The translations under genes and the position numbers were made by a program. Shown in pieces: positions 24,100 through 50,201 of a stretch of DNA of 64,000 nucleotides (position 1 is its first letter; the number at the start of each line of letters is the position of its first letter). Origin of the DNA: Acidobacteriota bacterium (GTDB lineage Bacteria > Acidobacteriota > Terriglobia > Bryobacterales > Bryobacteraceae); the NCBI GenBank assembly GCA_029776225.1, contig JAKOTR010000011.1, positions 310,001-374,000 of the forward strand. Reading direction: 5' to 3'. The notes under the pieces are model-generated. The model was not told the DNA's origin. It did not search any database and saw only the letters and a list, made by a program, of their open reading frames with translations.

Positions 24100-25200
24100 C
24101 TACGGCCGAAAGGTAAGCTCCACCGGGCGCAGATTGCGGCCGAGCGGGTCCCACTCGATGCGCCCCGATGCGCCCTCGTACGGCGAGAGCGCCTGGATGG
24201 CGTCACGGATCCGCGAGCGGTTCAGCCCGGCCCGGCGGATGGCGGCAGTGAGCAGTGCGGCTGCGTCGTAGCTGGAAGCCGCGTACAGGTCCGGCGCCAC
24301 GCCGTAGCGCTTGAGGAAGCGGGCGCGGAATTCCGCTCGAATTTCGCCGGCTCGGGGGAACGGCACGTTGCGAAGCTGCGCGGCTGCGAGTTTCGGCCCT
24401 CCGAAGATATCGCCCGTAAAGCCGCGCGCCCGGATGGCCTCGATCACGCGCTCGCTGTCCCGCGGCCCGGCGAGCACGACGGCGGCCCTCGCATTCGAAG
24501 CCGTGAGCCGGTCCGCGAGTTCGCCCGGCTGCCGCGCGCCCGGTTCGAATTCCACGTGCAGGACAGGGGAGGCGCGTTCCCGGCCGAGCGCGATTTTCAG
24601 CTCCGTGACGAAGGCTCGGGAATCGTGATCGGTGGCCGATAGGATGGCAAAAGGTGCGTGTTGCCCGAGAGCCCGCGCCAGAGGCGGAGCGAGCTGCTGA
24701 TCGGGCGGCAGGCAGGAGAAGACCCAGGGCACGTTCGCGCCGTGTATGCCGCGATCGGTGCCGGCCGGATTGACGAGGGGCAGCAGAGCCTTGGCGACAA
24801 TCTGTTCGGCCAGATGGGTGGTATCGCCGTCGATGCCGCCGATGATGGCCCAGACCCTTTCGGTGTAAACGAGACGCGCCAGTTTCCCCGCGCCGCCGCT
24901 CCAGGGGTTCTCATCCCAGACGGGCGCGAGCCGGAAGGCGAGGCCGCGGTAGCCGCCGCGCGCATTCGCCTCTTCGATGGCCAGGGCGGCGCCGCGCCAG
25001 AGCATGCCGCCGAGCGGGTGCGCGGGATCGTCCGGCCCGAAGTAGCCGATCAGGACTTCACGCACGTCCGCCGGTTCGGGATCGTCAAGGCCCGGGCCCT
25101 CAAAGTCCCTCGGGCGGTGGTTGGGATCGAAGTACGGCTTCTGGCAGAGGACGGGCGCGCTGAGTGCAAGCGCGAGTCCCAGGGCGAGTAAGAAGCGCAT
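24100..25200 (-). CDS. periplasmic substrate-binding protein (Peripla_BP_6, Leu/Ile/Val type)
   Basis: 366 residues; signal peptide ending near LSAPVLCQK, then a type I periplasmic-binding fold: VLIGYFGPDDPAHPLGG, GAALAIEEANARGGYRG, WAIIGGIDGDTTHLAEQI, VNPAGTD, YAASSYDAAALLTAAI. The Cys at the end of the hydrophobic stretch (LCQ) could be a lipobox. Last of seven operon genes; its start abuts the stop of its paralogue. No ABC permease or ATPase gene lies nearby, so it may act as a sensor or carrier instead of a classical uptake component. Confidence 0.85.
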   Translation of the reverse strand: MRFLLALGLALALSAPVLCQKPYFDPNHRPRDFEGPGLDDPEPADVREVLIGYFGPDDPAHPLGGMLWRGAALAIEEANARGGYRGLAFRLAPVWDENPWSGGAGKLARLVYTERVWAIIGGIDGDTTHLAEQIVAKALLPLVNPAGTDRGIHGANVPWVFSCLPPDQQLAPPLARALGQHAPFAILSATDHDSRAFVTELKIALGRERASPVLHVEFEPGARQPGELADRLTASNARAAVVLAGPRDSERVIEAIRARGFTGDIFGGPKLAAAQLRNVPFPRAGEIRAEFRARFLKRYGVAPDLYAASSYDAAALLTAAIRRAGLNRSRIRDAIQALSPYEGASGRIEWDPLGRNLRPVELTFRP

Positions 25201-26658
25201 TTACTTCATAGGCTCGATGGCGCCCGTGGCGCGGCTCACGCGGTCGCGCGCGGGAATGTAGCCACGTGGAATCCCGAGATCCTCGCGGGAGTAGTATTTC
25301 CAGGCGCCGTTTTCGCGCCTGCAAATGAACACCTCGCCGAGGTCGTCGAGCGTGGCGCTGAACGGGATATCGCCGGTGACGCCGGGCCAGGGCTGGCTGC
25401 GATAGGCGAGCACGTCGCGAATCTTGGCGCGATTCAAGCCGGCCACCTGAATGGCCCAGATCAGCAGGTTCATGCCGTCGTAGCCGTGGGCCGCGTACGT
25501 CTCGGGCTCCTGGTTGAAACGTGCCCGGAACGCCTTCCGAAACTCGTCGAGCTTGGGGTCCTTGCGGTCGGGATTCCACGGGTATGCGCAGATCACGCCC
25601 TCGGCGTTCTTGCCCGCAATCGCCAGGAACTCGTCCGAGACCGTGCGATCGCTGGCAAAGTATGGCTGGTTCATCCCCATCTTGCGCATCTGGTTGAGAA
25701 TGAGCGCGCTCTCTTTGGCGTCGCCCCAGTGAATGATGCAATCGAGATTGGCGGCCTTGAGGCGCTCCAGTTGGAGCGAAAAGTCCTCCGCGCCCACGCG
25801 GTAGGCCATTTCGAGAATGATCGGACGTTGCAGCCGGCGCGCGCTGTCGCGCACCTCGCGGACGCCGAACCTGCCGTAGCGGTTGCTTGCGCGGATGATG
25901 CCGATGCGCCGGTAGTTCATCTTGCGGATGATGTAGTCCATCAGCAGGTAGCTCTGCTGGCGGTCGTCGCTGATCACGCGCATCACCCAGGGAATGTTGG
26001 TTTCGATGAAGGTGGGGTCGGTGTCTCCGCTGTTTACCATGACAATCTCGGCCTTGAGCGCGACGCGGATGGCAATATGCGAGTTTGCGCCGTCGATGGT
26101 GCCGAGAATGCCCCAGACCCGGTCTTTGTAGGCCATGTTGATGATTTCGTTGCCCGAGGCGCCCCACAGGCCGTTATCGTTGGAGACCACGAGTTCAAAC
26201 GGAATCTTGCGCCGGAGATAGCCGCCGCGCGCGTTCGCCTGCTCGATTGCCAACTGCGCTCCTTGAAGCATCTTGATGCCGAGCGCCTCCTCGTGGCTCG
26301 CTCCGCCGGTGGCTACCGAAACCGTGGCCATGATCGGTCCGATGAACCCGATCTTTACCGATTTCAAATCCGGTCCCGGTTCCGGCTCGGCGCGCCGCGG
26401 CCCGGTGTATTCCATCTGGACCAGGAAATGCTCCTTGTAGGGCTTCGCGCCGCTGTACGGCTCAATATCGATGGGCGTTTTGGCGTAGTTCGTATCCTGT
26501 TTCAAGCGCAGGTCGGGGACTTCGTACGGCCCAACGGCATCGATGCGGCGCAGCACCTCGGCGGTGTCGGGATCGATGAGCGCCCTGAGTTCGGGCGGAT
26601 CGCCGGGCCGCTGGGCAAAAAGCAACGGAGCAATCAGGGCGAGGCAGATTCGTTTCAT
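25201..26658 (-). CDS. periplasmic substrate-binding protein (Peripla_BP_6) with N-terminal extension
   Basis: 485 residues from ATG 26658, which overlaps the upstream stop (ATGA). Signal peptide MKRICLALIAPLLFAQ, then about 100 residues not found in usual members (DTAEVLRRIDAVGPYEVPDL), followed by the binding fold: VKIGFIGPIMATVSVA, GAQLAIEQANARGGYLRR, WGILGTIDGANSHIAI, VNSGDTDPTFIETNIPW, YAAHGYDGMNLLIWAI. Diverged tandem paralogue of the gene that follows. The extension may contact the cytochrome or propeller proteins of the operon; that is a guess. Confidence 0.86.
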   Translation of the reverse strand: MKRICLALIAPLLFAQRPGDPPELRALIDPDTAEVLRRIDAVGPYEVPDLRLKQDTNYAKTPIDIEPYSGAKPYKEHFLVQMEYTGPRRAEPEPGPDLKSVKIGFIGPIMATVSVATGGASHEEALGIKMLQGAQLAIEQANARGGYLRRKIPFELVVSNDNGLWGASGNEIINMAYKDRVWGILGTIDGANSHIAIRVALKAEIVMVNSGDTDPTFIETNIPWVMRVISDDRQQSYLLMDYIIRKMNYRRIGIIRASNRYGRFGVREVRDSARRLQRPIILEMAYRVGAEDFSLQLERLKAANLDCIIHWGDAKESALILNQMRKMGMNQPYFASDRTVSDEFLAIAGKNAEGVICAYPWNPDRKDPKLDEFRKAFRARFNQEPETYAAHGYDGMNLLIWAIQVAGLNRAKIRDVLAYRSQPWPGVTGDIPFSATLDDLGEVFICRRENGAWKYYSREDLGIPRGYIPARDRVSRATGAIEPMK

Positions 26659-27848
26659 CGTGCGCCTCCCGACGCGGACCGGGCGCTCGCGGTCATCACG
26701 CCGCGCTCGCGCAGGCCGGGATAGTAATCCTTGCCAATCCCCCAGGCGAGTCCTTTGGCGGTGCCGATCCACACGTCGTTGCCGTTGATATCGGCCGAGA
26801 TCGTGTAGTTGTGCGGGATGTTGAGGCCGGTTTCCACGGTTTCGATCACCTGCTTGTCGCGCGTAACCACGGCATACCCAGTGTTGCGTTTCGGATCGCG
26901 CGTGTAGGCTACCCAGGTATTCGTGGCTACGTCCACGGCGGCGCCCAGGCCCTTGTCGGTGCAGAACCATGCCTCGTTGCCGCTGCGGACGGCGATGTTG
27001 TTAATGAAGTCGCTCGGCAGGCCGGAATCCTGGTTGTAGAATCCCCGCCAGTGGCGGCCGTCGTAGCGGGACGCGCCGAAGTAGGAAGAAACCCAGAGCA
27101 CCTTGTCCACATAGCCGGCGCCGGTGGTGATCACGTGGATGATGCCGTCGTCGCGGTAGAGATCGATTTCCATCTCGCCGTCGGGGTCCAGGTAATCTTT
27201 CCAGCGGCCGGTGGCGACGTCGTACTCGAGAATGCCGCTGCCCCAGACGGCCAAATGGACTTTCCCGTCGCCGTAGTGAACGCCGTAGTTCCAGATCTCC
27301 TCCATCGGGGCGTTCTTTTCGGTGAAGACGGTCCATTCCTTGGTGACGGTGTTGTAGCGGCTGGCGCCGGCGGTGGTGGCGGCCCAGACGTTATCGTTTT
27401 CGACGGCGACGGCGTACACCACGTCGTTCACCAGCCCGCTGTTCATCTGGTGCCAGTGGTCGAAGCGGCCTCCACTGAAGCGGGCCAGGCCGGCTCCGAA
27501 CAGGGCCAGCCAGACGTCGCCGGTTTTCTTGTCCACATCGATGCCCGTTATCACGCGCCAGGGCAGGCCGTCTTTTTCAGTCCAGCTCCTGATTTTGCCC
27601 GTGCGCTTATCGAGCATTGCCAGGCCACCTTCCGTTCCGATCCACACGCGCGGGCCATCGGCCTTGACGGCGAAGATGTGGTCGTTGGGGAGCCCGTCTT
27701 TCGTGGTGAACTGCCTCCAGTGCGTATAGATGTACGGCAGCTTCTGAGCCGCTGCCGCCGGCGCCGCGGTCTGGGCCTGCCCGCCCGATCCCCAAGGCAG
27801 AATGCAGCCTAGCCCAGCGGCGAGTGCGAATACGGATGCGAGTCTCAT
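26655..27848 (-). CDS. exported regulator-type beta-propeller protein
   Basis: 397 residues. Start is ATG 27848, preceded by TTGGAGGGCTGG; the TTG inside that sequence is not used. Signal peptide (ASVFALAAGLGCILPWG), then repeats of the Reg_prop kind: FTTKDGLPNDHIFAVKADG, VWIGTEGGLAMLDKRTGK, VWLALFGAGLARFSGG, VWAATTAGASRY, WFCTDKGLGAAVD, VWIGTAKGLAWG. In Bacteroidota and Acidobacteriota such propellers form the periplasmic half of hybrid sensors, but here no kinase domain follows, so it is a free periplasmic ligand-binding or structural protein. Lies 13 nt after the cytochrome gene. Confidence 0.84.
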   Translation of the reverse strand: MRLASVFALAAGLGCILPWGSGGQAQTAAPAAAAQKLPYIYTHWRQFTTKDGLPNDHIFAVKADGPRVWIGTEGGLAMLDKRTGKIRSWTEKDGLPWRVITGIDVDKKTGDVWLALFGAGLARFSGGRFDHWHQMNSGLVNDVVYAVAVENDNVWAATTAGASRYNTVTKEWTVFTEKNAPMEEIWNYGVHYGDGKVHLAVWGSGILEYDVATGRWKDYLDPDGEMEIDLYRDDGIIHVITTGAGYVDKVLWVSSYFGASRYDGRHWRGFYNQDSGLPSDFINNIAVRSGNEAWFCTDKGLGAAVDVATNTWVAYTRDPKRNTGYAVVTRDKQVIETVETGLNIPHNYTISADINGNDVWIGTAKGLAWGIGKDYYPGLRERGVMTASARSASGGAR

Positions 27849-27861
27849 CCAGCCCTCCAAG

Positions 27862-30690
27862 TCAGAGCGTCTTGAGGTATTCGATCAAATCGTTAAGCTG
27901 ATCTTTCGTCATGTCGTTGGTTACGCCGTGCCGGTCGTCCGGGTTGTGAATGGTCCAGATCTCTTCCAGGGTGGCGGCCGAGCCATCGTGCAGGTACGGC
28001 GCGGAATCGTAAATGTTGTTGAGGTGAGGCACGTCGAACTTCCCTTGGCGGTCGAGCGGGTGGCGCGTGCCGACGTCGTGCCGCTGGCGGTCCGTGTAAT
28101 ACGGCGGTGGGTGGCAGGTGCTGCACCGGTTCTCCACCGGGATTTCGCGGCCGTCGTTCGTCGTGGTGCGGTAAAAGATTTCCTTGCCGCGCCGCTGCGC
28201 CGGCGTGAGCGGGGCGTTCATCGCGCGATACCGGTTGGGCGGGCGGGGAATCGTCGTGATGTAGTAATCGAGCGCAGAAAGCTCTTCCGGGGTGAAGGGG
28301 GCAAGGCGCGTGAAGAAGACCGAAAGGCGCGGTCCGCATTGCCGCGAAAGGCTCGGATTCGTGCCCTCCCACTTGAACGGAGCGGTGTCAAGAATGCCGC
28401 GCAGCGTCCGGTTGTCGACGGGGCTTACGCCAATGCCGTCCGCTTCGATGTCGTACGTGACGCCGTCGATGTGTCCGTCCGGATGGCAGGAGTGGCAAGA
28501 AAACTGGCGGTGAAACGTAACCTTGGCGCTATGGAAAACGCGCTCGCCGAAGCGCTGTTTGGTTACTTCTTTCGGACCGCCGAGGTCGATGACGCCGGCG
28601 GGCTCCAGCCGCGCCAGGTCGATCACCCCGATGTTGTCATCGAGGCAATTGGCGACGTAGGCGGTCTTTCCGTCCGGCGCGATCACGATGCCGCGAGGGC
28701 TGCGGCCCGTGGGAATGTGCTTCACGATGAACTCGGTGGGTTTGCCGAGATGGTTTGGAAGCACGTGCTCGCGTTCGTACTTCGATGAGCGCTGGATAAG
28801 CCCGGTGAGAAGCTGGATGTCGACGACGGCGATACGGTCCGTGCCCGAACTCGAGGCCAGCGCGTAGCGGCCATCCGGCGTGCAGGCGATGCCGGTGACG
28901 TCCGCAAAACCCATGTCGGGCTCGTCCAGGAGCACCTGGTCCACTTCGCCCGTGCGCCAGAGCACCGCGAGGCCGTTGGTGATTGTCCAGCCCTGCAACA
29001 GGCGCGTCATGGGGACCAGGTTTTTGGTCCGGTTCATGGTCGCCAGGGCGAAACGGCCGCTTGGGTGCCAGTCGATCCCCATCATGAGATTGGCGCCCGG
29101 CACCTGGAGCCGGTCTTCCACCGTGCCGCGCTCCGTTTCGATCTGCGTGACCTCGGAAAGCAGAGTCGAGCGCAGCGGCCGGATGTGCGAGAAGGTGTTG
29201 GTGACGAGCAGCGCCGAGCCGTCCGGCGAGAGACTGGCGGCCCAGGGGCCGCGGCCGGCAGCCAGCGTTTTCACCCGCTCCAGCGCGGCGAGATCAAAGA
29301 CCCAGATATCGTCCGACGACGTGTTCAGAACGTAGAGCAGCCTGCCCTGATTGTCCGTCGCCACGCCGTGCGGTTCATCGCCGGTGGGGATCGTCTTAAG
29401 GACCTTGCGCCCAGCCGCGTCGATGACGGCGATGGTATCGTCGAGGCGGTTCGTTACAAAGGCGCGCTTGCCGTCCGGGGTGAAGGCGACTCCGGTCGGC
29501 GCGCCGCCGGTGTGGAACTCGGCCGTTTTCTCCCGGGTGGCGAGGTCAATCACGGCGACCGTATCGCCCGTTTCGCATGTGACCCACAACTCGGCGCCGC
29601 CCGGCCGGATAGCCAGGTTGAGCGGGTTTTTGTACTTCGGCTCGGCGATGCCGTTGGCCGCCTCGGTCCTGGTGGGATGGGCGATTTTCTTCACCGCTTC
29701 GTCGTATTGAAACTTGTTGCCATCGTGGCAGCCCAGGCAGGTTTTGCGGGTGGGCTGGCGAAGCCCCGCTTTCGCGGCGGCGGTGCGGTCGCGCATGATG
29801 GCGTCCTCGAGATACTCGCTGCCCGCGCCGTGGCAGGCTTCGCAGCCGACGCCCTCTTCGACCCGCGCGGAAGCCAGACGCGCCGGAACGGCGGCAGGCG
29901 CATGGCACTTCAGACACGCCGGATCGGTTTGCGGCTCGGCCACACCCTTCTCTTTGGCGACCTCAAAGCCGCGGGCCGTGCCGAGCACAGCCCATGCGCG
30001 CGCATGCTGGCTGCTGCGCCAGATGCTGTACTGATAGCCCCTGTTCGGTCCGCGGTGGCAAGCGCCGCAAGCGTCGGAGCCGGCGAAGCGCGGCCCCTCG
30101 GCTTTGCCGTCCGCGGGGACGGCCGCGGGCACCGGCCCTGGCACGGGGTTTTCGGGAAGCGGGTGTTTCACCGCTTCCAGGCCTTGCTTCAAATCGAACA
30201 CAGGCTTCTGGAGAGCCGCGATATGCGAGCCTTTTTCCTGATGGCATTTCATGCACTCACGCTCGCCCGGCATGCGCAGGCCGGCTTTCCTTGCCGCCTC
30301 GGGGTCGCGCATCACGCTTTCCGTCATGTACTCGCTGCCCGGACCGTGGCAGGCCTCGCACTGCACGCCGTCTTCGATACGGAACTCGGGTTCGCGCTCC
30401 CATTCTTCCGTGTGCGCTGCCGTGGCGTGGCACCCCAGGCAAATCACCGACTGCTGGGGTTCGACGTCGCGCAGGCCGCTCAGCCTGGCGATGACGCGCG
30501 ATTCGGGTTTGGCCAGCACCGCCCAGGCCTGGCTGTGCTTTGAGTGCAGCCAGAGGCCGTACTGGCTGCCCATGCTCCGCGCGCCGTGACAGGTGGAGCA
30601 CGCCCGCGCCCCGACATAGACGGGAGTCTTAGGCGCGCCCACCAGGTATGCTGCGAGCAGCACGGCCGGCCAGAGAAGTCTGCCCATCAT
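27862..30690 (-). CDS. ten-haem c-type cytochrome / YVTN beta-propeller / MauG-like fusion
   Basis: 942 residues, exported (hydrophobic N-terminus to ~20). Ten CXXCH sites: eight in two tetrahaem blocks at ~31, 84, 111, 146 and ~208, 259, 283, 318 (cytochrome c-554-like repeats, each with CEACHG followed by PGSEY or AGSEY), then a seven-bladed-type propeller (~345-690; LWVTCETGDTVAVIDLATRE, RAFVTNRLDDTIAVID, TAYVANCLDDNIGVID), then CHSCH and CSTCH in a di-haem peroxidase/MauG-like C-terminus with RGKEIFYRTTTNDG and APYLHDGSAATLEEI. Likely a periplasmic electron-transfer protein or oxidase. ATG overlaps the upstream stop (ATGA). Confidence 0.9.
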   Translation of the reverse strand: MMGRLLWPAVLLAAYLVGAPKTPVYVGARACSTCHGARSMGSQYGLWLHSKHSQAWAVLAKPESRVIARLSGLRDVEPQQSVICLGCHATAAHTEEWEREPEFRIEDGVQCEACHGPGSEYMTESVMRDPEAARKAGLRMPGERECMKCHQEKGSHIAALQKPVFDLKQGLEAVKHPLPENPVPGPVPAAVPADGKAEGPRFAGSDACGACHRGPNRGYQYSIWRSSQHARAWAVLGTARGFEVAKEKGVAEPQTDPACLKCHAPAAVPARLASARVEEGVGCEACHGAGSEYLEDAIMRDRTAAAKAGLRQPTRKTCLGCHDGNKFQYDEAVKKIAHPTRTEAANGIAEPKYKNPLNLAIRPGGAELWVTCETGDTVAVIDLATREKTAEFHTGGAPTGVAFTPDGKRAFVTNRLDDTIAVIDAAGRKVLKTIPTGDEPHGVATDNQGRLLYVLNTSSDDIWVFDLAALERVKTLAAGRGPWAASLSPDGSALLVTNTFSHIRPLRSTLLSEVTQIETERGTVEDRLQVPGANLMMGIDWHPSGRFALATMNRTKNLVPMTRLLQGWTITNGLAVLWRTGEVDQVLLDEPDMGFADVTGIACTPDGRYALASSSGTDRIAVVDIQLLTGLIQRSSKYEREHVLPNHLGKPTEFIVKHIPTGRSPRGIVIAPDGKTAYVANCLDDNIGVIDLARLEPAGVIDLGGPKEVTKQRFGERVFHSAKVTFHRQFSCHSCHPDGHIDGVTYDIEADGIGVSPVDNRTLRGILDTAPFKWEGTNPSLSRQCGPRLSVFFTRLAPFTPEELSALDYYITTIPRPPNRYRAMNAPLTPAQRRGKEIFYRTTTNDGREIPVENRCSTCHPPPYYTDRQRHDVGTRHPLDRQGKFDVPHLNNIYDSAPYLHDGSAATLEEIWTIHNPDDRHGVTNDMTKDQLNDLIEYLKTL

Positions 30691-32348
30691 TGCTTTACCC
30701 TGACAGCTTTTGCCTCGCGCACCAGTTTCAAAATCTGGTTCGCCTTCACCTTTTCGAGTCTTTCCACCGCGCCGTCCGGCCAGCGGATCTCGACCGAATC
30801 GGCGTACTCCGCCTTTCCGAGTCCGAAGTGCAGCCGGGGATCGCCCTGGGAGAGGTAGCCGCGCGCCGGAACCAGGTCCTGGATCTGCTTCAGCGAGCCG
30901 GTGGTGACGGTGACGCGCGCGCCGTTGGCATCCCGCGTTCCGGTGGGGAATTTCAGGCGCGCATCGATCACGAGCCAGTTGTTCACCTTGTTCCCGCCGT
31001 CGTTGCGAAGCAGCTTCGGGTAGTCGTTTAAATTGATGATCAGGATGTCGATGTCGCCGTCGTTATCGATATCCGCCCAGGTGGCGCCGCGGCCCACGTA
31101 CTTTTCCGCGAAATAGGCTCCCGAGCGAGTGGAAACGTCTTCGAACGTCCCGTCGCCTTTGTTGCGCATCAAGGTGTCTTCCTGCACGTACTCGTGATGG
31201 GCGTTGCCGTGGACGGTGAGCAGATCGAGCCACCCATCGTTGTCGTGGTCGTACAGGATGGCGCCCCAGCCGGCGTACTGCCCCAGCGCCTGCGAGAGGC
31301 CGCTGACGGCGGTGCGGTCGAAAAACGTTCTGCGGCCGTTGACTATGCTCTGGACAAACAAGATGCAGTAGTTCAGGTTGGGGATGAAGATATCGAGCAA
31401 ACCGTCGCGATTCACATCGCCGACCACCGGACCCATCGAAGAGACGCCCTGCCCGTTCTCTCCATATGCAATGCCAAGCTCGAGGGCTTTTTCCTTGAAA
31501 ACGCCCTTGCCAGTGTTCTCGAAGTAGTAATTTTCAATCGCGTCGTTGGCGGCGAAAAGATCGAGCAGGCCGACATTGCGGAAATCCGAAACGGTGACGC
31601 TCATTGCGCGGCCGTCCGGTTTGTAGATCCCCACCTCCTTGGTGACGTCGGTGAAGGTGCCGTCGCCGTTGTTGCGGAAGAGCGCATTCGGCACGCCGCT
31701 GTAGCTCAGCGGCCCGGGATACCCCTGGGCAGGGTAAAAGTCGCGGAACTTGCCGTCGTCGTACACCAGGTAGTTGCCGACGAACACGTCGAGATAGCCG
31801 TCGTGGTTGTAATCGAACCAGGCGGCCGAAACGCTCCATCGCTTGTCGTCCAGCCCCGATTGCTTCGACACGTCGGTGAAGGTGCCGTCGCCGTTGTTGC
31901 GGTAGAGAATGTTGGGGCCGTAGTTAAGGACGTAGATGTCTACATCGCCGTCGTTGTCGTAGTCGGCCGCCGAGCATCCGGTGCCATACACGCCGCCGCC
32001 GTCCACGCCGGCCTGCGCGGTTACATCCGTGAATGTGTTGTTGCCGTTGTTTCTGTAGAGCCGGTTGGACAGCTTCCCGCGGAGGTCCCTGCCCTGGTTG
32101 TCGCTGACGCCCTTCGTCCACGTGCCGGTGACGAAGTAAATGTCCATGAAGCCGTCGCCGTTGTAATCGAAGAAACACGCGCCGGCGCCAGTGCCCTCGA
32201 CGATGTTGTCGAGGTGGCGGTCGCCGTAGCTGTGTTTGAATTCGATGCCCGCCTGTTTGGTGATGTCTGTGAAAACGGGCCACTGCTGCGGCGGCGCTGC
32301 AAACGCAGCGGCGGCGGCCAGCAATCGCATGAGGCAGGAAACTCTCAT
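30687..32348 (-). CDS. CRTAC1 family protein: FG-GAP/VCBS repeats with ASPIC/UnbV domain
   Basis: 553 residues; signal peptide MRVSCLMRLLAAAAAFAAPP. Repeated calcium-binding-like FG-GAP blades (FFDYNGDGFMDIYFV, AADYDNDGDVDIYVLN, WFDYNHDGYLDVFVGN, DVNRDGLLDIFIPN, WADIDNDGDIDILIIN) build an integrin-like propeller, and the C-terminal ~100 residues are ASPIC/UnbV (GARVTVTTGSLKQIQDLVPA, LHFGLGKAEYADSVEIRWPDG). Start is ATG 32348, overlapping the preceding stop as ATGA; the open frame continues upstream but inside the previous gene. Secreted or periplasmic, possibly a scaffold for the cytochromes encoded on both sides. Confidence 0.9.
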   Translation of the reverse strand: MRVSCLMRLLAAAAAFAAPPQQWPVFTDITKQAGIEFKHSYGDRHLDNIVEGTGAGACFFDYNGDGFMDIYFVTGTWTKGVSDNQGRDLRGKLSNRLYRNNGNNTFTDVTAQAGVDGGGVYGTGCSAADYDNDGDVDIYVLNYGPNILYRNNGDGTFTDVSKQSGLDDKRWSVSAAWFDYNHDGYLDVFVGNYLVYDDGKFRDFYPAQGYPGPLSYSGVPNALFRNNGDGTFTDVTKEVGIYKPDGRAMSVTVSDFRNVGLLDLFAANDAIENYYFENTGKGVFKEKALELGIAYGENGQGVSSMGPVVGDVNRDGLLDIFIPNLNYCILFVQSIVNGRRTFFDRTAVSGLSQALGQYAGWGAILYDHDNDGWLDLLTVHGNAHHEYVQEDTLMRNKGDGTFEDVSTRSGAYFAEKYVGRGATWADIDNDGDIDILIINLNDYPKLLRNDGGNKVNNWLVIDARLKFPTGTRDANGARVTVTTGSLKQIQDLVPARGYLSQGDPRLHFGLGKAEYADSVEIRWPDGAVERLEKVKANQILKLVREAKAVRVKQ

Positions 32349-34195
32349 CGCTTTCCTCCCGATGCGGTGGGAAGGGCTTCCCAATGCGCGCCGAAGTCGA
32401 TCCACTCGACGATGGCCCGCTTCTGGGCCGCCGTCAACGGCTTCGAGCCCGCGGGCGGCATTGCCGCTACGGGCGCGGCCGCGGCGCCGTCCCACGGACG
32501 CGAGGTGTTGCGGCCGTGTATGCTCCAAACCAGCGGGCTGGTGCGCGCCTGTCCGGGCGTGACGTATCCGGCAAGCAAAGCTTTGTAGGCCGCCTCCGGC
32601 GAGTGGAGCGGCAGCTTCGACCCAGCGGGGTGGCACGCGCCGCTGGCGCATCCCGCCGCAAGCAGCGGCATGATGTCCCGGCGGAAATCCACCGTGCGGC
32701 GTTTTTCCACCGGCAGGTTGAGCCGGGCCGCCGGATGCGAGAGCGCTTTCGCGGCGACGTTTTCCGGCGTGCGCTCGCCATCCTCATGACAGCCGATGCA
32801 GCCGCGGTGTTCCTTGTTCTTCACCCAGATCCACGCGCTCGACCGCAGCGCCATGCCGTCCGCATCCAGCGCCTGGAGTTGAATCGGGAGGTTGGCCGGA
32901 ACCTGTATGTGGAACGATCCGTCGTCTTCCACGTCGACTTCGCCCAGCAGGCGCCGGTGCAGCAAAGGCGAGCGGGTTTCGGTTCCGGAGGCCGCCGGTG
33001 TGCGCGGAACGGCCTCGAGCACCCGCAGCCGTTTCACGCTGCCGGGCGGCATCCAGTTGCGGTCGGAAAAATCGGTGGTGTAGAGATCGAGGCAGTAAAA
33101 CACGCCGTCCGGCTCGGAATCGACCACGACGGAAGACCGGCCATCGGGTTCCTCGCGCGGCGCGACGAGCTTGGCCTGGATATCGTGGAATTTCGGGTCG
33201 TCGAAGACGGGCTCCGCGCGGCCGGTCTCTGGGTCCAGCCGGTAGATTGCATGCGTGCCCTTTCCGTTTGCCGGCCGGCGCGAAATCAGCACCGGGCCGT
33301 CGGGCAGCGGCGACGGCGAATGATAGAGGCCCGCTTCGGGCGGCGTAAGAGCGCGGTAAGAGTGCAGATTGCGGCGCAGGCTCAGGGTCCCGACCGATCC
33401 GGCGCCGTCCCAAAGGGCCTCGGAGGACTCGATGAAAACCACCATGCGCTTCGGCGTCGTGCACGCCATGTGCTTGATCCGCCGGCCTTGCATTCCCGAA
33501 AACGCCGCGAAGTCCGTGCCGTCCAGGTTGATTCCGTACAGTTCCACGCGGCCGAGCGGACCGCCACCCTCCAGCGTGTGCCAGCGCCAGGCGGAAAACA
33601 GAATCCGCCCGTCCTGCATCTGGAACGGATCGAAGCTGCTGGAAACCTGGAACGTGAGCCGGCGCGGTTGCGTGCCATCCAGGCGAATGGAATACAAGTT
33701 GGATGCGGGAATCGGGCCGTACTCGTTGTACTCGCCGGCCGCCGTGCTGACAAACGTGACCTGGTAGTGCGGCGCCTCGTCGTCCAGGTAGAAGATGGAG
33801 GATTGATAGACCGGGTTGCGGCAGTCGCCGAGACCCCGCGTGATCTGGCGCAAGCCCGAGCCGTCCGCGTTGATCTCGTAAATCTCCCAGTTGCTTGACG
33901 CGGTCTTGCGGCCCGCGAACAGGATGCGTTTACCGTCGAAGGAGACGTCGGGATCCGCCGCGCTTTCAAAATCCTTGACCAGCGGACGGACGGCGCCGCC
34001 GGGCAGCAGCAGCATGAGCCGGCCACCGCGCCCGTAATCGCCGCGCAGCACCGCGCGGGGAGAAGGCAGACCGGTGAGGGGAAGCTGCGTGAAAACCACG
34101 GGCGCGGTGAGTTTCGGGGCAGCCTGGCTGCTTGCGGCGCTGCCTACAAGAATCGCGGAAAGCATCCACCACGCCCGGAACACGGCCGCGCTCAC
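32345..34195 (-). CDS. HzsA-related protein: TolB-like propeller plus c-type cytochrome domain
   Basis: 616 residues from GTG 34195, which overlaps the RidA stop (GTGA); ATG 34165 is the alternative and also leaves a signal peptide (MLSAILVGSAASSQA). PD40/TolB-type blades (DPDVSFDGKRILFAGRKT, EIYEINADGSGLRQITRG, LYSIRLDGTQPRRLTF) match the middle domain of proteins annotated as hydrazine-synthase-alpha related. Then CIGCHEDGERTPEN (haem c site) and RRDIMPLLAAGCASGACHPAG, a CX4CH pair as in planctomycete-type cytochromes. Relation to true hydrazine synthase is only by family; no anammox genes are present. Second gene of the seven-gene operon. Confidence 0.8.
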   Translation of the reverse strand: MSAAVFRAWWMLSAILVGSAASSQAAPKLTAPVVFTQLPLTGLPSPRAVLRGDYGRGGRLMLLLPGGAVRPLVKDFESAADPDVSFDGKRILFAGRKTASSNWEIYEINADGSGLRQITRGLGDCRNPVYQSSIFYLDDEAPHYQVTFVSTAAGEYNEYGPIPASNLYSIRLDGTQPRRLTFQVSSSFDPFQMQDGRILFSAWRWHTLEGGGPLGRVELYGINLDGTDFAAFSGMQGRRIKHMACTTPKRMVVFIESSEALWDGAGSVGTLSLRRNLHSYRALTPPEAGLYHSPSPLPDGPVLISRRPANGKGTHAIYRLDPETGRAEPVFDDPKFHDIQAKLVAPREEPDGRSSVVVDSEPDGVFYCLDLYTTDFSDRNWMPPGSVKRLRVLEAVPRTPAASGTETRSPLLHRRLLGEVDVEDDGSFHIQVPANLPIQLQALDADGMALRSSAWIWVKNKEHRGCIGCHEDGERTPENVAAKALSHPAARLNLPVEKRRTVDFRRDIMPLLAAGCASGACHPAGSKLPLHSPEAAYKALLAGYVTPGQARTSPLVWSIHGRNTSRPWDGAAAAPVAAMPPAGSKPLTAAQKRAIVEWIDFGAHWEALPTASGGKR

Positions 34196-34680
34196 CTCGC
34201 AGAGGTGCGCTGGAAGACTGCAATCGCTTCGATTTCCACCAGCAGGTCCGGCCGGCACAGGTGCGCCTGAATGCCGGTCGAGGCGGGCAGCGGATCGAGC
34301 CCTTGCGCCTTGTAGAAAGCGGTGCGCTCCTCGTTGAAGGCGGCGTAGTCCCGGTCGATATCGCGCAGGTAGCAGGTGGTGCGAACGACATCCTTCCAGG
34401 TAGCGCCCTCGGCTTCCAGCAATGCCGTGATGTTGGCGAAGGTGCGGCGCGTCTGGGCGCGAAAGTCGCCCGGATGCAGGGTCTCGCCGTTCGGGCCGAT
34501 ACTGGCGGTGCCGGAGATCAGCAGGACCGTGATATTCCCCAGGTCGAGGCGAATGCCGCGGGAAAAGGAACTTGGCCGGGGGTAGTTATACGCCTCGTTC
34601 AGGACCGCCGGGTTGCTAATCGCCTTTTTCACCAGAGCGGCATTCGAGTTGCAGGCCGCCAGCAGTTCTTCCATGCGCAT
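34192..34680 (-). CDS. RidA/YjgF family protein
   Basis: 162 residues. Core RidA sequence: NITVLLISGTASIGPNGETL, GDFRAQTRRTFANITALLEAEGATWKDVVRTTCYLRD, and C-terminal RPDLLVEIEAIAVF. The catalytic Arg of reactive-enamine deaminases corresponds to the CRPDLLVEIE segment, which retains Arg and Glu. An N-terminal extension of ~35 residues precedes the core. RidA proteins hydrolyse enamines/imines; here it heads the cytochrome-propeller operon and overlaps the next start. A TTATAAAG -10-like element lies upstream on the minus strand. Its role in this operon is not known. Confidence 0.87.
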   Translation of the reverse strand: MRMEELLAACNSNAALVKKAISNPAVLNEAYNYPRPSSFSRGIRLDLGNITVLLISGTASIGPNGETLHPGDFRAQTRRTFANITALLEAEGATWKDVVRTTCYLRDIDRDYAAFNEERTAFYKAQGLDPLPASTGIQAHLCRPDLLVEIEAIAVFQRTSAR

Positions 34681-34904: not shown

Positions 34905-35236
34905 AGCGAAAAGCCGGGCTTCTACAGGGCACGCTGGATTTGATGGTCCTGCGGACTCTCGAAACCATGGGCCCACAACACGGATTCGGCCTCGCCCGCA
35001 GGATCCAGCAGATCTCCGGGGGCGCACTCGACCTGAATCAGGGCACGCTCTATCCGGCCCTCCTGCGCCTGGAACAGAAAGGCTTAATCCGCGCGAAATG
35101 GGGAATTTCGGAGAATAACCGCCGCGCGAAGTTCTACGAACTCACGCGCTCCGGGCGCAAGCGGATTCAACAGGAGCGCGAATACTGGGACCGGACGGTG
35201 GCCCTCATGGAGCGGTTCCTGCGAACCGTGGAGTAG
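34892..35236 (+). CDS. PadR family transcriptional regulator
   Basis: 114 residues; winged helix typical of acidobacterial PadR proteins: LLQGTLDLMVLRTLETMGPQHGFGLARRI, GGALDLNQGTLYPALLRLEQKGLIRAKWG, NNRRAKFYELTRSGRKRI, with a short C-terminal dimerisation helix. Expected to repress its own promoter and the permease gene that starts 3 nt after its stop. No ribosome-binding site precedes the ATG, consistent with leaderless translation. Confidence 0.92.
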   Translation: MSTGERKAGLLQGTLDLMVLRTLETMGPQHGFGLARRIQQISGGALDLNQGTLYPALLRLEQKGLIRAKWGISENNRRAKFYELTRSGRKRIQQEREYWDRTVALMERFLRTVE

Positions 35237-35239
35237 CCT

Positions 35240-37827
35240 ATGCGCAGCTTCTGGGCAAGACTAATCGCGACGTTTCGCAAGCGGGCTCTCGAGCGGGAAT
35301 TGGATGCCGAACTCCAGTTTCATCTCGACATGCTAATCGAGGAAAACCTCGCCCGGGGCATGTCTCCCGAGGAAGCGCGCGCACAGGCGCTCCGCAGCTT
35401 CGGCGGCGTGGAACAGACGAAGGAAGAATACCGTGACCGCCGGGGCTTCCCGGCGCTGGACAGCCTGACTCAGGACATCCGCTTCGCCGCGCGGATGTTG
35501 CGGCGCGATCCGGGCTTCACCGCAGTGGCCGCCTTGACCATGGCATTGGGCATCGGCGCCAACACCGCCGTCTTCACCGTCGTAACGCCGTCATCATGCG
35601 GCCGTTACGTTTCCCCGAGCCCGAGCGCCTCATGGTCATCCTATCGGAAAAAGGGGGCGAGGCTTTCGCCTCCGCACAGGGCGTATACGTAGACTGGCGG
35701 GAGCGCGCCACAAGCTTCGAAACCGTTGCCGGGGCTTACAACACCGGGATGATTCTCAGCGGCGTCGAGCAGGCGCGCCGCGTCTCCGTGGGTGCTGTCA
35801 GCCACGATTTCTTCGATGTCCTCGGAGTGCGGCCGGTTCTCGGCCGGCCCATTTCCAGGGACGAAGATCAGCCGGGACGAGCTTCGGTCGCCCTTCTGGG
35901 CGCCGAATTCTGGCGAAGCGAGTTTAGCGGGAACCCGAATGTCCTTGGCCGCACCCTGGTGCTGAACGGGAAGATATTCACGGTCACCGGAGTCATACCC
36001 GACGGCTTTCGCTTTGCACACTTCGGCGCAATCGACGTCTGGGTCCCCATGGCTGCCAACCGCAACTCCCGCGGAGGCGGCAACGTGGTGGCGATCGGGC
36101 GCCTCGCCCGGGCATCACCCGGCAAGCCGCCCAGAAGGAAATGGACGCGGTCATGCAACAGATCCGCCGCGAGCACCTGGAGGACTCGCGGACGTATGTT
36201 GTGGTGAAGCCGTTCCATGAGTGGATTGTCGGCGATGTGCGGCGGACGTTTCTCGTTCTGCTTGGAGCCGTCGGCTTCGTGCTGCTGATCTGCTGCGCCA
36301 ACCTGGCGAACCTGCTGCTGGCGCGGTCAACCGCCAGGCAGAAGGAGATGGCCATTCGTGCGGCCCTGGCGCGGGCCGCGCTCGCCTGGTGCGCCAGACA
36401 CTTGTGGAGAGCGTCATGCTTTGCCTGATCGGCGGTGTGGCGGGCGCCGCTCTGGCGATCGCCGCTGTACGCGCCGTTCCTGCCATTGAGTCCTTCCGTA
36501 TTCCTCGCGTCGAGGAGGTAGGGGTCGACTATACGGTCCTGTCACGGCCGCGGCCATCGCGATCGCGAGCGGCATCCTGTGCGGGTTCGCGCCGGCGTTC
36601 CAGGCGGGGCGCAGAGATCTTGCCGCGGCCATGCATCAAGGCGACGCCATAATGGCCGCTCGTGTTGGCGGCCTGCCGCTCCGCAACGTGCTGGTGGTGG
36701 CGCAACTGGCTCTCGCAATGGTGCTGCTCAGCGGCGCCGGCTTGATGACGAACACGTTGCTTCGCCTGTTGAGCATCGACGTCGGCTTCGAGCGCGACCG
36801 CGTTCTTTCTATCCAGCTCTCCCTGCCGTACCAGAAATACGATGCGGCCCGCCGCGTAGAATTCGCCCGGCGGCTCGCCGCGGAAGTCGGCCGGATGCCG
36901 GGCGTGATCCGGGTTAGCGCGGCGGATTACTTGCCCTTGCAGGCGGTCCTTTTCCCTTATGAGCTGAGCGCAGAGGATGCCGGCGAAAAGCGGACCTGCT
37001 CGGCTCTGGCGCGCAATATTGACCGCGATTTCCTTGCCGTCATGGCATACCTCTGCTCGCCGGCCGGGACTTCGAGCCCGCCGACGACCGCCGCACGCCG
37101 GTGCCCGTAATGATCAGCCGGACCACAGCGGCCATGCTGTTCGGCCGGACGAATCCTCTCGGCAAGGAGATCATGACGAATTACCGAAGCCGCGCCAGGC
37201 TCGAGGTGATCGGGCTGGTGGGCGATGTGCGCCAGACCGGTCTGACCACGGAGCCGGGCTGCCAGATCCATTTGCCGTTGCCCTATGGAGCTTCCCAGTA
37301 TGTCGTTGCGCGCATCCTCTCCCAATCCCACGATTTTGCTGCCGACATCCGGAGCACGGTCCGCGCCATGGACCGAAGTGCCGCCGCCGGAAATAGAGAC
37401 CGTGGATGACTGGTTCTCGCGGGAGGTGGCCAAGCCGCGCTTCTACATGCTGCTCCTGGCAGCCTTCGCGGCAACGGGGCTCATCCTGGCAGCCATCGGA
37501 ATCTACGGGGTTACCGCCAATACGGTGGCGCGGCGGACCCGCGAGTTCGCGATCCGGATGGCGTTCGGCGCCGGACGCAGTGACATCTTGCAACTTGTTC
37601 TGTCACTGGGGGCCCGGCTCACGATCGCCGGGGCCGTGATCGGCCTTGCAGGAGCATTGGCTGCGACGCGTCTCATCTCGTCGCTGTTATACGGAGTCAA
37701 GCCGGAAGATCCCCTGACACTCGCCTCTGGTCTGGTGGTGCTTGCCGGAACCGGGCTCGGCGCCTCATATATTGCCGCGCGTAAGGCCACAAGTGCGGAC
37801 CCGAATGTCGCTCTCCGGTGTGAGTAA
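35240..37827 (+). pseudogene. ADOP-type FtsX-like permease, interrupted by about six frameshifts
   Basis: Reading across frames gives a complete acidobacterial duplicated orphan permease (MacB/FtsX superfamily, ~860 residues): N-terminal [32 protein letters not shown], first helix [20 protein letters not shown], MacB periplasmic domain, three-helix block [20 protein letters not shown], second periplasmic domain, last block GLILAAIGIYGVTANTVARRTREFAIRM. Frame changes occur near 35582, 36106, 36370, 36541, 37044 and 37378. At most sites one missing base in a short run restores the frame, and no nonsense codon is seen in the corrected frame. This could be a young pseudogene or assembly errors. 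If real, PadR has no functional permease partner here. Confidence 0.82.
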
Positions 37828-47308: not shown

Positions 47309-48022
47309 TCACGCTCCCTTCCGCCGCTTCCACTCGAACAGCGCGATGCCGGCCGCCACCGAGACATTCAGCGAAGAGATTTTGCCGGCCAGCGGGATCC
47401 GCACCAGGAAATCGCAATGCTTGCGGACCCCCTGGCGCACGCCTTTGCCCTCGCCGCCGAATACAAAGGCGGCGGGAGAGGCGTAGTCGATGCGGTCGTA
47501 GGTTTCCTGGCCGCGCTCGTCGAATCCGTAGATCCAGAAGCCGAGCCGCTTGAGTTGTTCGAGCGCCTGGGTGAGGTTGCCCACGCGGGCGACCGGCAGG
47601 TATTCGAGCGCGCCCGCGGCGGCCTTGGCCACAGTCTCGGTCAGCCCGACAGCGCGGCGTTCGGGAACCACCACCGCGCTGGCCCCGGCCGCGTGCGCCG
47701 TCCGGATGATCGCGCCGAGATTGTGCGGGTCTTCCACGCCGTCGAGAACCACCAGGAGCTGCGCGCCTCTGGCAGCCTCGTCGAGCGTGACGAACCCGTG
47801 GGCCGCGCCCAAGGCCGCGACGCCCTGGTGCGCCGCGCCGCCCGCCAGCCGGTCCAGCGCCTCGCGCGGCTCGAAGCGCACCGGCACGGAAAGCTCGCGG
47901 CACAGCTCGATGATTTGTTGAATGCGCGGCCCGGACAGGCCTTTGGCAATGACGACGCGGGTCAGAGGGCGGCGGGCGCGAAGCGCCTCCAGGACGGGAT
48001 GAATGCCAATGCGAGCGGGCAC
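47309..48022 (-). CDS. rlmB: 23S rRNA (guanosine-2'-O)-methyltransferase RlmB-type SpoU/TrmH family
   Basis: 237 residues. N-terminal substrate-binding subdomain (GIHPVLEALRARRPLTRVVIAKG, GAAHQGVAALG) and SPOUT catalytic domain with motif 1 LDGVEDPHNLGAIIRTAHAAGA, motif 2 FVFGGEGKGVRQGV and motif 3 IPLAGKISSLNVSVAAGIALFEW, the trefoil-knot signature. Methylates a guanosine ribose in 23S rRNA, most likely G2251. Monocistronic on the minus strand; 122 nt without features separate it from the isomerase gene. Confidence 0.92.
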   Translation of the reverse strand: MPARIGIHPVLEALRARRPLTRVVIAKGLSGPRIQQIIELCRELSVPVRFEPREALDRLAGGAAHQGVAALGAAHGFVTLDEAARGAQLLVVLDGVEDPHNLGAIIRTAHAAGASAVVVPERRAVGLTETVAKAAAGALEYLPVARVGNLTQALEQLKRLGFWIYGFDERGQETYDRIDYASPAAFVFGGEGKGVRQGVRKHCDFLVRIPLAGKISSLNVSVAAGIALFEWKRRKGA

Positions 48023-48297
48023 CTAACCATCATGCACAAAAGTAGTCAGCCTGATGTGGCGCCCTCTTTCAAAAGGAAGGGGGCTGTGGGCCGTCGATGT
48101 CCTCCATGAGCGATTCCGGCCCACAACCCAGGGTCGAATATTGACTCCACCTTAGAGCAAGGCCGATCGGAAATCGCCGCTGCGGGTCCGCAAGTTTTTG
48201 AAACAATTGGATAAAAAAACCTGGAAATGGCGTTACCGCATCTCCCACGCCGATTCCCTCGCTCGAAAAAGTGGAGGCGTGCGGGGAGACGTGCTGC

Positions 48298-48324
48298 GGC
48301 GCGCCCGACTTCGTCGGGCGCGCC
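48298..48324. repeat. 12-bp perfect inverted repeat
   Basis: GGCGCGCCCGAC-TTC-GTCGGGCGCGCC: 12-bp stem, 3-nt loop, no T-run after it on either strand. It lies 4 nt before the first CRISPR-like unit. Very stable as RNA; could be a transcription-blocking or processing structure. Confidence 0.6.
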
Positions 48325-48327
48325 TGG

Positions 48328-48435
48328 CACTCAATGGGGCCGCGACCGAGTGATCGCGGAAATGTTCGTTTATTTTCAAAAGTTTACGTTTGAGTAAACT
48401 CTTCAATGGGGCGGATGCGCTGGCAGTCTCACTTC
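48328..48435 (+). CRISPR. candidate two-repeat CRISPR remnant (36-nt repeat, 36-nt spacer)
   Basis: First unit 48328-48363 reads ...TCAATGGGGCCGCGA, an 8-nt loop, then TCGCGGAAAT: a 6-bp dyad CCGCGA/TCGCGG (48340-48345, 48354-48359) between a TCAATGGGGCC start and a GGAAAT end, a form seen in many 36-nt CRISPR repeats. Exactly 72 nt later (48403) TCAATGGGGC recurs, preceded by CT as in the usual CTTCAATG; the rest of that copy (to 48435) is degenerate, as terminal repeats often are. The 36-nt spacer is AT-rich. It lies 250 bp before the cas genes. Only ten bases are shared, so chance is not excluded. Confidence 0.4.
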
Positions 48436-48531
48436 CCGTCTCATCCGACTCCGTTAGTATATTTAAACTCCATTCGTATAGTCAAATGTAAAAAACATTG
48501 ACCAGCAGCAAGTCTCATGCTTAAATAAGAA

Positions 48532-48566
48532 ACGCGCTCGAACGGCGGCAATCCGTTCGAGCGCGT
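48532..48566. repeat. 14-bp perfect hairpin upstream of the Cas2-like gene
   Basis: ACGCGCTCGAACGG-CGGCAAT-CCGTTCGAGCGCGT, a perfect 14-bp stem with a 7-nt loop. No T-tract follows on the plus strand (TAACAACC), and A-rich sequence precedes it, so on the minus strand it would be followed by TTTCTTATTT and could terminate leftward transcription. It may equally be an operator or RNA element of the cas transcript. Confidence 0.6.
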
Positions 48567-48685
48567 AACAACCGCTTGTCCGCAGGCGCAGACTCGCAGT
48601 TTGCTGTCCACCCTGAGCATAACATAGCTCGGGGCCACCCGGGCTGCGCCTCCGACGAGCGTAATCAACACACTCAGGAGGAAGT

Positions 48686-48919
48686 ATGCGCGATCTCATC
48701 ATCGCGTACGATCTGGTGTCAAACACATCAGACTACGACTACGCACGGTTTTTTGAGTTCCTGCACAAGCTGGGAGCTCATCCGCTCAACGGCAGCGTGT
48801 GGCTGCTGAAGAATACCTCTTACGCGATCGGGTTACTGCATGCCGAACTCACAAATTTACTTAGTCCCAGAGATCACTTGCTCGTGGCTCTCATCAATGG
48901 AGTAGTCTCGACAAAATAG
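48686..48919 (+). CDS. Cas2-fold (SinR-like) small protein beside the cas operon
   Basis: 77 residues with AGGAGG before the ATG. LIIAYDLVSNTSDYDYARFF (beta-1 with the Asp of the Cas2/VapD ferredoxin fold), LHKLGAHPLNGSVWLLKNTS, a helix LLHAELTNLLS and PRDHLLVALING as last strand. The Tyr-Asp-Leu and DY positions match the stand-alone Cas2-like family often called SinR, rather than adaptation Cas2, which carries a longer C-terminus for dimer swapping. Related proteins are metal-dependent nucleases or toxins. No cas1 is nearby. 64 nt before csb1. Confidence 0.7.
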   Translation: MRDLIIAYDLVSNTSDYDYARFFEFLHKLGAHPLNGSVWLLKNTSYAIGLLHAELTNLLSPRDHLLVALINGVVSTK

Positions 48920-48934
48920 CTGCTAACTTTAGGA

Positions 48935-48965
48935 GTACACTTTCGGCGGAGATGTGATAGTGTAC
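48935..48965 (+). promoter_or_regulatory. inverted repeat just before csb1
   Basis: GTACACT (48935-48941) and AGTGTAC (48959-48965) form a 7-bp dyad with a 17-bp spacer, 18 nt before the csb1 ATG. The arms occupy the places where -35 and -10 elements of a csb1 promoter would be expected, suggesting a repressor or activator site controlling the cas operon. Confidence 0.5.
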
Positions 48966-48983
48966 CCAGTCAAGGAGTAGATC

Positions 48984-50198: not shown

Positions 50199-50201
50199 CC
50201 G

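What the first reader, a model, noticed from the sequence alone, without database searches (positions are those of the whole stretch)
24100..34680. Seven-gene coupled operon joining RidA, two cytochromes, two propellers and two binding proteins
Every junction overlaps, abuts or is within 13 nt (GTGA, ATGA, ATGA, 13 nt, ATGA, abutting), so the products are almost surely used together. All but RidA carry export signals. The set (HzsA-related cytochrome, CRTAC1 protein, ten-haem propeller/MauG fusion, Reg_prop protein, two Leu/Ile/Val-type binding proteins without a transporter) fits no pathway I know. It could be a periplasmic oxidation system in which binding proteins capture a substrate, cytochromes take electrons and RidA clears a reactive imine in the cytoplasm.
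Basis: partly seen in the sequence, partly recalled or inferred. Interest (0 to 1): 0.8.

Follow-up and report, generated by a model that had tools for sequence, protein, structure and literature searches.

The report
Hydrazine-synthase-like haem operon with chorismatase-like partner
A soil bacterium carries a tightly packed seven-gene unit whose two haem proteins are relatives of the enzyme that makes hydrazine in anammox bacteria, but with key residues changed, and whose supposed 'RidA' gene carries hallmarks of enzymes that cut chorismate into hydroxybenzoates; the set travels together across several bacterial phyla and its job is unknown.

Summary
In detail: seven minus-strand genes, 24100-34680, with every junction as stated. 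The two cytochromes are relatives of hydrazine synthase (HZS). Gene 2 is the alpha subunit: its only PDB sequence match is 5c2v_A, and its model matches that chain at TM 0.77. Gene 4 is two four-haem c554 domains fused to HZS beta and gamma. Haem-site residues show it is not a hydrazine synthase. A 2025 paper already describes such homologues with CRTAC1 and, in one clade, two binding proteins, without a function.

The unit is not incidental: in 42 well-flanked loci from several phyla, alpha-CRTAC1-betagamma-Reg_prop-SBP1 are together in all 42 and SBP2 in 38. New here is the first gene. It lacks the arginine RidA needs and carries chorismatase-type residues. It co-occurs with betagamma in its class (43 of 45 genomes against 8 of 205; p about 1e-37). 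Two-domain chorismatase homologues take its place in some lineages, and DAHP synthase sits beside it in several phyla. None of seven anammox-type genomes has it.

Best reading: a periplasmic HZS-type haem oxidoreductase working with a chorismate-derived aromatic compound. The parts list is firm; the chemistry is inference.

The parts
34192..34680 (-). Rid-superfamily protein, 162 aa, chorismatase-like: Gly57 (SGTAS), Cys142 and Glu149 (CRPDLLVE), Ser134 in place of RidA Arg105; no signal peptide
   Evidence: PF01042 3e-21; TIGR04444 FkbO/Hyg5 4e-12; alignments; RidA fold
32345..34195 (-). HZS alpha-like cytochrome, 616 aa, propeller plus haem motifs CIGCH and CX4CH
   Evidence: NF052339 1.8e-53; 5c2v_A 2e-46; model TM 0.77 to 5c2v
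30687..32348 (-). CRTAC1-type FG-GAP propeller with ASPIC/UnbV domain, 553 aa, exported
   Evidence: PF13517, PF07593
27862..30690 (-). Ten-haem protein, 942 aa: two c554-type domains (about 1-340), HZS beta propeller (355-691), HZS gamma dihaem domain (712-942)
   Evidence: NF052342 1.2e-58; 5c2v_B 2e-39, 5c2v_C 4e-20, c554 1bvb 4e-7; alignment A1
26655..27848 (-). Reg_prop beta-propeller without kinase part, 397 aa, exported
   Evidence: PF07494; strongly conserved in 82 sequences
25201..26658 (-). SBP1, Leu/Ile/Val-type binding protein with about 110-residue N-terminal extension, 485 aa
   Evidence: PF13458 3e-38; conserved D189, H194, D214
24100..25200 (-). SBP2, Leu/Ile/Val-type binding protein, 366 aa
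   Evidence: PF13458 2e-30; conserved D124, H129, D149

Best explanation
The operon encodes a non-anammox, hydrazine-synthase-type periplasmic haem complex (alpha plus c554-beta-gamma) with fixed accessory proteins (CRTAC1, Reg_prop propeller, two binding proteins). It is paired with a cytoplasmic chorismatase-like Rid protein. Most likely the Rid protein makes a chorismate-derived aromatic such as a hydroxybenzoate. That compound, or something made from it, reaches the periplasm, where the haem complex oxidises it or uses it as a redox partner; the eight extra haems of the c554 domains pass electrons to or from the dihaem gamma site, and the binding proteins hold a ligand. Shown here: family identities, conservation of the gene set, genome-wide co-occurrence with the Rid gene, DAHP synthase neighbours, loss of HZS catalytic residues. 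Inferred: chorismatase activity, the aromatic ligand, direction of electron flow, role of the binding proteins.
For: HZS alpha, beta and gamma homology. Gene set kept in 42 of 42 loci apart from SBP2 (38) and linked Rid (19). Rid lacks Arg105 and has the Hyg5-type Cys and Glu (PMC7170507). Two-domain chorismatase homologues replace it upstream of alpha or follow betagamma. DAHP synthase adjoins it in several phyla. Co-occurrence 43/45 against 8/205 genomes, and 15/21 against 10/178; none in seven anammox-type genomes.
Against: No activity is known for any single-domain Rid of this type. By fold, and by count of shared invariant residues, it is as close to RidA as to chorismatases, and the tree is uninformative. 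The window's own operon has no DAHP synthase. Three of 28 module genomes show no Rid homologue. The binding-protein pockets carry Asp and His residues that do not obviously suit an aromatic acid.
Confidence: 0.4

Rival explanations
1. A dihaem-peroxidase/MauG-like complex: the gamma haem, with its conserved Trp, oxidises a protein or small substrate using peroxide, and the aromatic link is indirect. The propellers and binding proteins are assembly factors, as XoxJ/MxaJ are thought to be for methanol dehydrogenases (own knowledge).
For: Gamma resembles CCP/MauG/MbnH; Trp sits where HZS has His144, the residue PMC12758564 notes as important for CCP/MauG catalysis.
Against: It does not explain the strict link to a chorismatase-like gene or to DAHP synthase.
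Confidence: 0.25
2. It still does reduced-nitrogen chemistry: the gamma haem reduces NO or a similar molecule, with a different second step at the alpha haem.
For: Complete alpha, beta, gamma set; third covalent Cys of haem gamma-I kept in 74 of 76 matched sequences.
Against: Alpha Tyr591, gamma His144 and gamma Asp168 are replaced; PMC12758564 concludes that the homologues cannot make hydrazine.
Confidence: 0.12
3. One reading: binding proteins capture an amine, cytochromes oxidise it, RidA hydrolyses the imine.
For: RidA fold; binding proteins of an amino-acid-type family.
Against: The arginine essential for imine hydrolysis is Ser in the copies read (PMC4433059); neighbours are aromatic-biosynthesis genes; SBP1 differs from its amino-acid-binding relative at the aligned carboxylate-side positions.
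Confidence: 0.05

Closest known systems
Clade I HZS homologues of Hagglund et al. 2025 (PMC12758564), including Paludibaculum fermentans and Syntrophobacter fumaroxidans
   Same: alpha-CRTAC1-betagamma order, eight extra N-terminal haems in two c554 domains, gamma Trp, third Cys kept
   Different: That paper reports the two binding proteins only for its clade III, and the sections read do not mention Rid/chorismatase, DAHP synthase or Reg_prop; no function is proposed there
Anammox hydrazine synthase (Kuenenia, PDB 5c2v)
   Same: alpha, beta and gamma folds; haem alpha-I CXXCH; haem gamma-I with third Cys
   Different: Tyr591, His144 and Asp168 replaced; beta and gamma fused and carrying eight extra haems; extra partner genes; opposite gene order
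Chorismatases FkbO, Hyg5 (CH-I, CH-II)
   Same: SGTAS and CRxDLLVEIE motifs with the catalytic Glu; lineages with two-domain homologues in the same slot
   Different: The window protein is a single Rid domain; no activity known
RidA/YjgF imine deaminases
   Same: Fold (VIA Z about 17, rmsd 2.0, 125-126 residues)
   Different: Arg105 replaced by Ser; below the TIGR00004 cut-off (59.8 against 106 bits)

Membership tests
Hydrazine synthase (functional, anammox) | alpha, beta and gamma subunits | tested here: met
   as homologues; scores far below the NCBIfam equivalog cut-offs
Hydrazine synthase (functional, anammox) | haem alpha-I proximal Tyr591 | tested here: not met
   motif CIGCHEDGE; no Tyr after the haem motif
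Hydrazine synthase (functional, anammox) | gamma His144 and Asp168 at haem gamma-I | tested here: not met
   W774 and R788, both invariant in A1
Hydrazine synthase (functional, anammox) | third covalent Cys (gamma Cys165) | tested here: met
   C785
Hydrazine synthase (functional, anammox) | makes hydrazine from NO and ammonium | not testable with these tools
   needs purified protein
Clade I non-anammox HZS homologues | alpha-CRTAC1-betagamma order with c554 domains and two alpha haem sites | tested here: met
   the second alpha haem is CX4CH. No tree was built with that paper's sequences
RidA imine deaminase | catalytic Arg105 | tested here: not met
   Ser134
Chorismatase CH-II (Hyg5) | Cys and Glu of the CRxDLLVE motif, Gly of SGTAS | tested here: met
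   C142, E149, G57 invariant; the Gly also occurs in RidA
Chorismatase CH-II (Hyg5) | two-domain architecture and the N-domain Gly-164 | tested here: inconclusive
   single domain; its PASTGI motif resembles that of the N-domain
Chorismatase CH-II (Hyg5) | converts chorismate to 3-hydroxybenzoate and pyruvate | not testable with these tools
   needs an assay
Liv-type (HAAT) ABC transporter | permease pair for the binding proteins | tested here: not met
   none in the operon; a single BPD_transp_2 hit in the 97.7% complete genome

The most novel reading that the evidence does not exclude
Hydrazine-synthase-type haem complexes outside anammox act on, or depend on, a chorismate-derived aromatic compound made by a single-domain chorismatase that has been mistaken for RidA. 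Anammox HZS would then be an offshoot of an aromatic-linked redox system that took on NO and ammonium as substrates.
Probability: 0.25. Interest if true: 0.85.

Novelty: new variant of a known kind. Interest (0 to 1): 0.6.

Why it matters
Hydrazine synthase was thought to lack homologues, and its relatives outside anammox bacteria have no assigned function. The fixed gene set, and especially the chorismatase-like and DAHP synthase partners, give a concrete metabolic lead to what this enzyme class does elsewhere, testable with one small soluble protein and chorismate. It would also bear on how the key anammox enzyme arose, and it questions the RidA annotation of this gene in many Acidobacteriota.

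Tried and rejected
RidA as imine deaminase: rejected on the missing Arg. Functional hydrazine synthase: rejected on residues. Amino-acid transport: no LivHM pair. Maximum-likelihood tree of Rid, RidA and chorismatase domains: the RidA and chorismatase branches are too long, so placement is uninformative. Fold search of the Rid model: RidA-type structures fill the list; fold does not separate the families, and the absence of chorismatases there is no evidence. Invariant Rid positions shared with chorismatase C-domains (20 of 49) and with RidA (17-18 of 42-47) show no overall preference; only the motif residues discriminate. Promoter scan: no convincing sigma-70 site for the operon. Literature searches found no description of the Rid/DAHP synthase link, within an open-access library only.

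Full report
Observation. Families: Rid; HZS_alpha; FG-GAP/ASPIC-UnbV; c554-propeller-dihaem; Reg_prop; two Peripla_BP_6.

Identity of the cytochromes. NCBIfam scores gene 2 against HZS alpha (1.8e-53) and gene 4 against the HZS beta-gamma fusion (1.2e-58), both far below the curated cut-offs. In the PDB by sequence, gene 2 matches only 5c2v_A (2e-46). Gene 4 matches 5c2v_B (2e-39) over residues 355-691 and 5c2v_C (4e-20) over 712-942, with c554 at its N-terminus. The AF2 model of gene 2 (pLDDT 83) matches HZS alpha at TM 0.77, E about 1e-38; the next fold, TolB, is at 1e-12. Genes 2 and 4 together carry a complete HZS-type subunit set plus eight extra haems.

It is not a hydrazine synthase. 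HZS has Tyr591 as proximal ligand of haem alpha-I, and gamma His144 and Asp168 near haem gamma-I (PMC12758564; PMC12607021). Here the alpha motif is CIGCHEDGE, gamma His144 is W774 and Asp168 is R788. The third covalent Cys is kept (C785). Of 76 relatives matched by the search pattern, all have Trp and 74 have the Cys; 12 did not match the pattern.

Prior description. Hagglund et al. 2025 (PMC12758564) found such homologues in four clades: alpha-CRTAC1-betagamma in clades I and II, and two substrate-binding proteins downstream in clade III. Clade I includes Paludibaculum fermentans. They conclude that key residues are lost and propose no function. The sections I read do not mention Rid, Reg_prop or DAHP synthase. 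The finding is therefore a member of a published group, with additions.

The set is conserved. In close relatives the seven genes recur, with the Rid gene first, last or in the middle; one of two copies in G017 keeps only a fragment of SBP2, and G034 (the genome of L049) has its Rid elsewhere. A scan of named genomes returned 80 loci from Acidobacteriota, Planctomycetota, Verrucomicrobiota, Neomarinimicrobiota, Calditrichota/Deferribacteres, Aminicenantes and Deltaproteobacteria. In the 42 with more than 4.3 kb on both sides of betagamma, alpha, CRTAC1, betagamma, Reg_prop and SBP1 are present in all 42, SBP2 in 38 and a linked Rid in 19. That scan was seeded with betagamma and keeps the best 80, so it favours close relatives. 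A shorter version without the c554 domains has the same genes in other lineages of the class (L038-L040) and in Planctomycetota, where DAHP synthase leads the operon (L164-L166).

The 'RidA'. The catalytic Arg105 of RidA is Ser134 here, in a PASTGI-type motif. Rid proteins without that Arg appear not to hydrolyse imines, although about 10% of RidA proteins carry Ser (PMC4433059). Instead the protein has ISGTAS and CRPDLLVEIE, as the Hyg5 chorismatase does (VSGTAS, CRSDLLVEIE), including the Cys and, seven residues later, the Glu. In Hyg5 that Glu (334) is the catalytic acid, and Nat-hyg5 has its subfamily Cys-318 seven residues before Glu-325 (PMC7170507). Its PASTGI and RTTCYLRDIDRDYAAFN stretches resemble the N-domain of two-domain homologues (PASTGI, RTWFYLRDILDWYGPFN). 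One chain may thus hold both halves of the site, as a homotrimer would need; that step is inference. Overall similarity does not decide between RidA and chorismatase.

Context of the Rid gene. In six loci a two-domain homologue stands upstream of alpha instead (L051, L095, L097, L104, L109, L115). L104 matches TIGR04444 at 1.5e-42 and the FkbO_Hyg5 N-domain; the others are weaker. In L167, L168, L171 and L172 such a protein directly follows betagamma. DAHP synthase, the entry to the shikimate pathway, adjoins the Rid gene or lies in the operon in L038, L039, L080, L111, L112, L134, L153, L155, L157, L160 and L164-L166; in L095 and L097 it is divergent. Stand-alone Rid copies sit beside 2OG-Fe(II) oxygenases, and one lies near prephenate dehydratase and a UbiA-type prenyltransferase (L131).

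Co-occurrence. Among 250 genomes of the class: betagamma and Rid 43, betagamma only 2, Rid only 8, neither 197 (Fisher p 1.3e-37). Among 199 Planctomycetota, 15 of 21 genomes with a fused betagamma have the Rid/chorismatase homologue, against 10 of 178 others (p 1e-11). None of the seven genomes matching only over the beta part, as separate anammox-type subunits would, has it; that they are anammox bacteria is my inference from the match. Relatedness of genomes is not corrected for, so the p-values are indicative. Of 28 module genomes searched, nearly all chosen because no strong Rid was linked, 25 have a homologue somewhere.

Binding proteins. The own genome has one BPD_transp_2 permease, not a LivH/LivM pair. 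Conserved residues are Asp189, His194, Asp214 in SBP1 and Asp124, His129, Asp149 in SBP2; by the alignment to 4gnr they lie in the stretches that form the ligand site of this family (own knowledge). The ligand is probably not a plain amino acid; a metal or a cation is possible. This does not fit easily with an aromatic acid, and is the weakest point of the preferred model.

Mechanism. Shown: parts, conservation, lost HZS residues, link to chorismate-pathway genes. Inferred: Rid makes a hydroxybenzoate-type compound, and the periplasmic complex oxidises it or uses it as a redox partner, electrons moving through the c554 haems.

Noticed in passing
34943-37827 (+): A PadR regulator gene divergent from the operon is followed by coding pieces in several frames (35240-35692, 36141-36428, 36631-37110, 37134-37409, 37378-37827) that look, by eye, like a broken MacB/ADOP-type permease gene. 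PadR-like genes also stand beside the module in L035, L036, L045 and L046 (by eye).
   Followed up: partly
48984-54514 (+): CRISPR-associated genes: Cas_GSU0053 (Csb1) at 48984-50198 and Cas3 with a C-terminal HD domain at 51494-54514, as in type I-G/I-U systems. No repeat array in 47900-51600.
   Followed up: partly
25201-26658 and 24100-25200 (-): Both binding proteins share a conserved Asp-His-Asp pattern (D189, H194, D214; D124, H129, D149) where typical amino-acid-binding relatives have small or hydroxyl residues; a metal or cationic ligand is possible.
   Followed up: partly
L153, L157, L160: A second locus in module-bearing genomes: CRTAC1-type gene, Rid gene and DAHP synthase, without the haem genes in the stretch read.
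   Followed up: no
L127, L128, L131, L132, L133, L135: Stand-alone copies of the same Rid family beside a 2OG-Fe(II) oxygenase gene of about 245 aa (the Pfam match was tested in L131, L132 and L133).
   Followed up: partly
L151, L158: A two-domain Rid/chorismatase homologue next to a gamma-like dihaem gene away from the main module.
   Followed up: no
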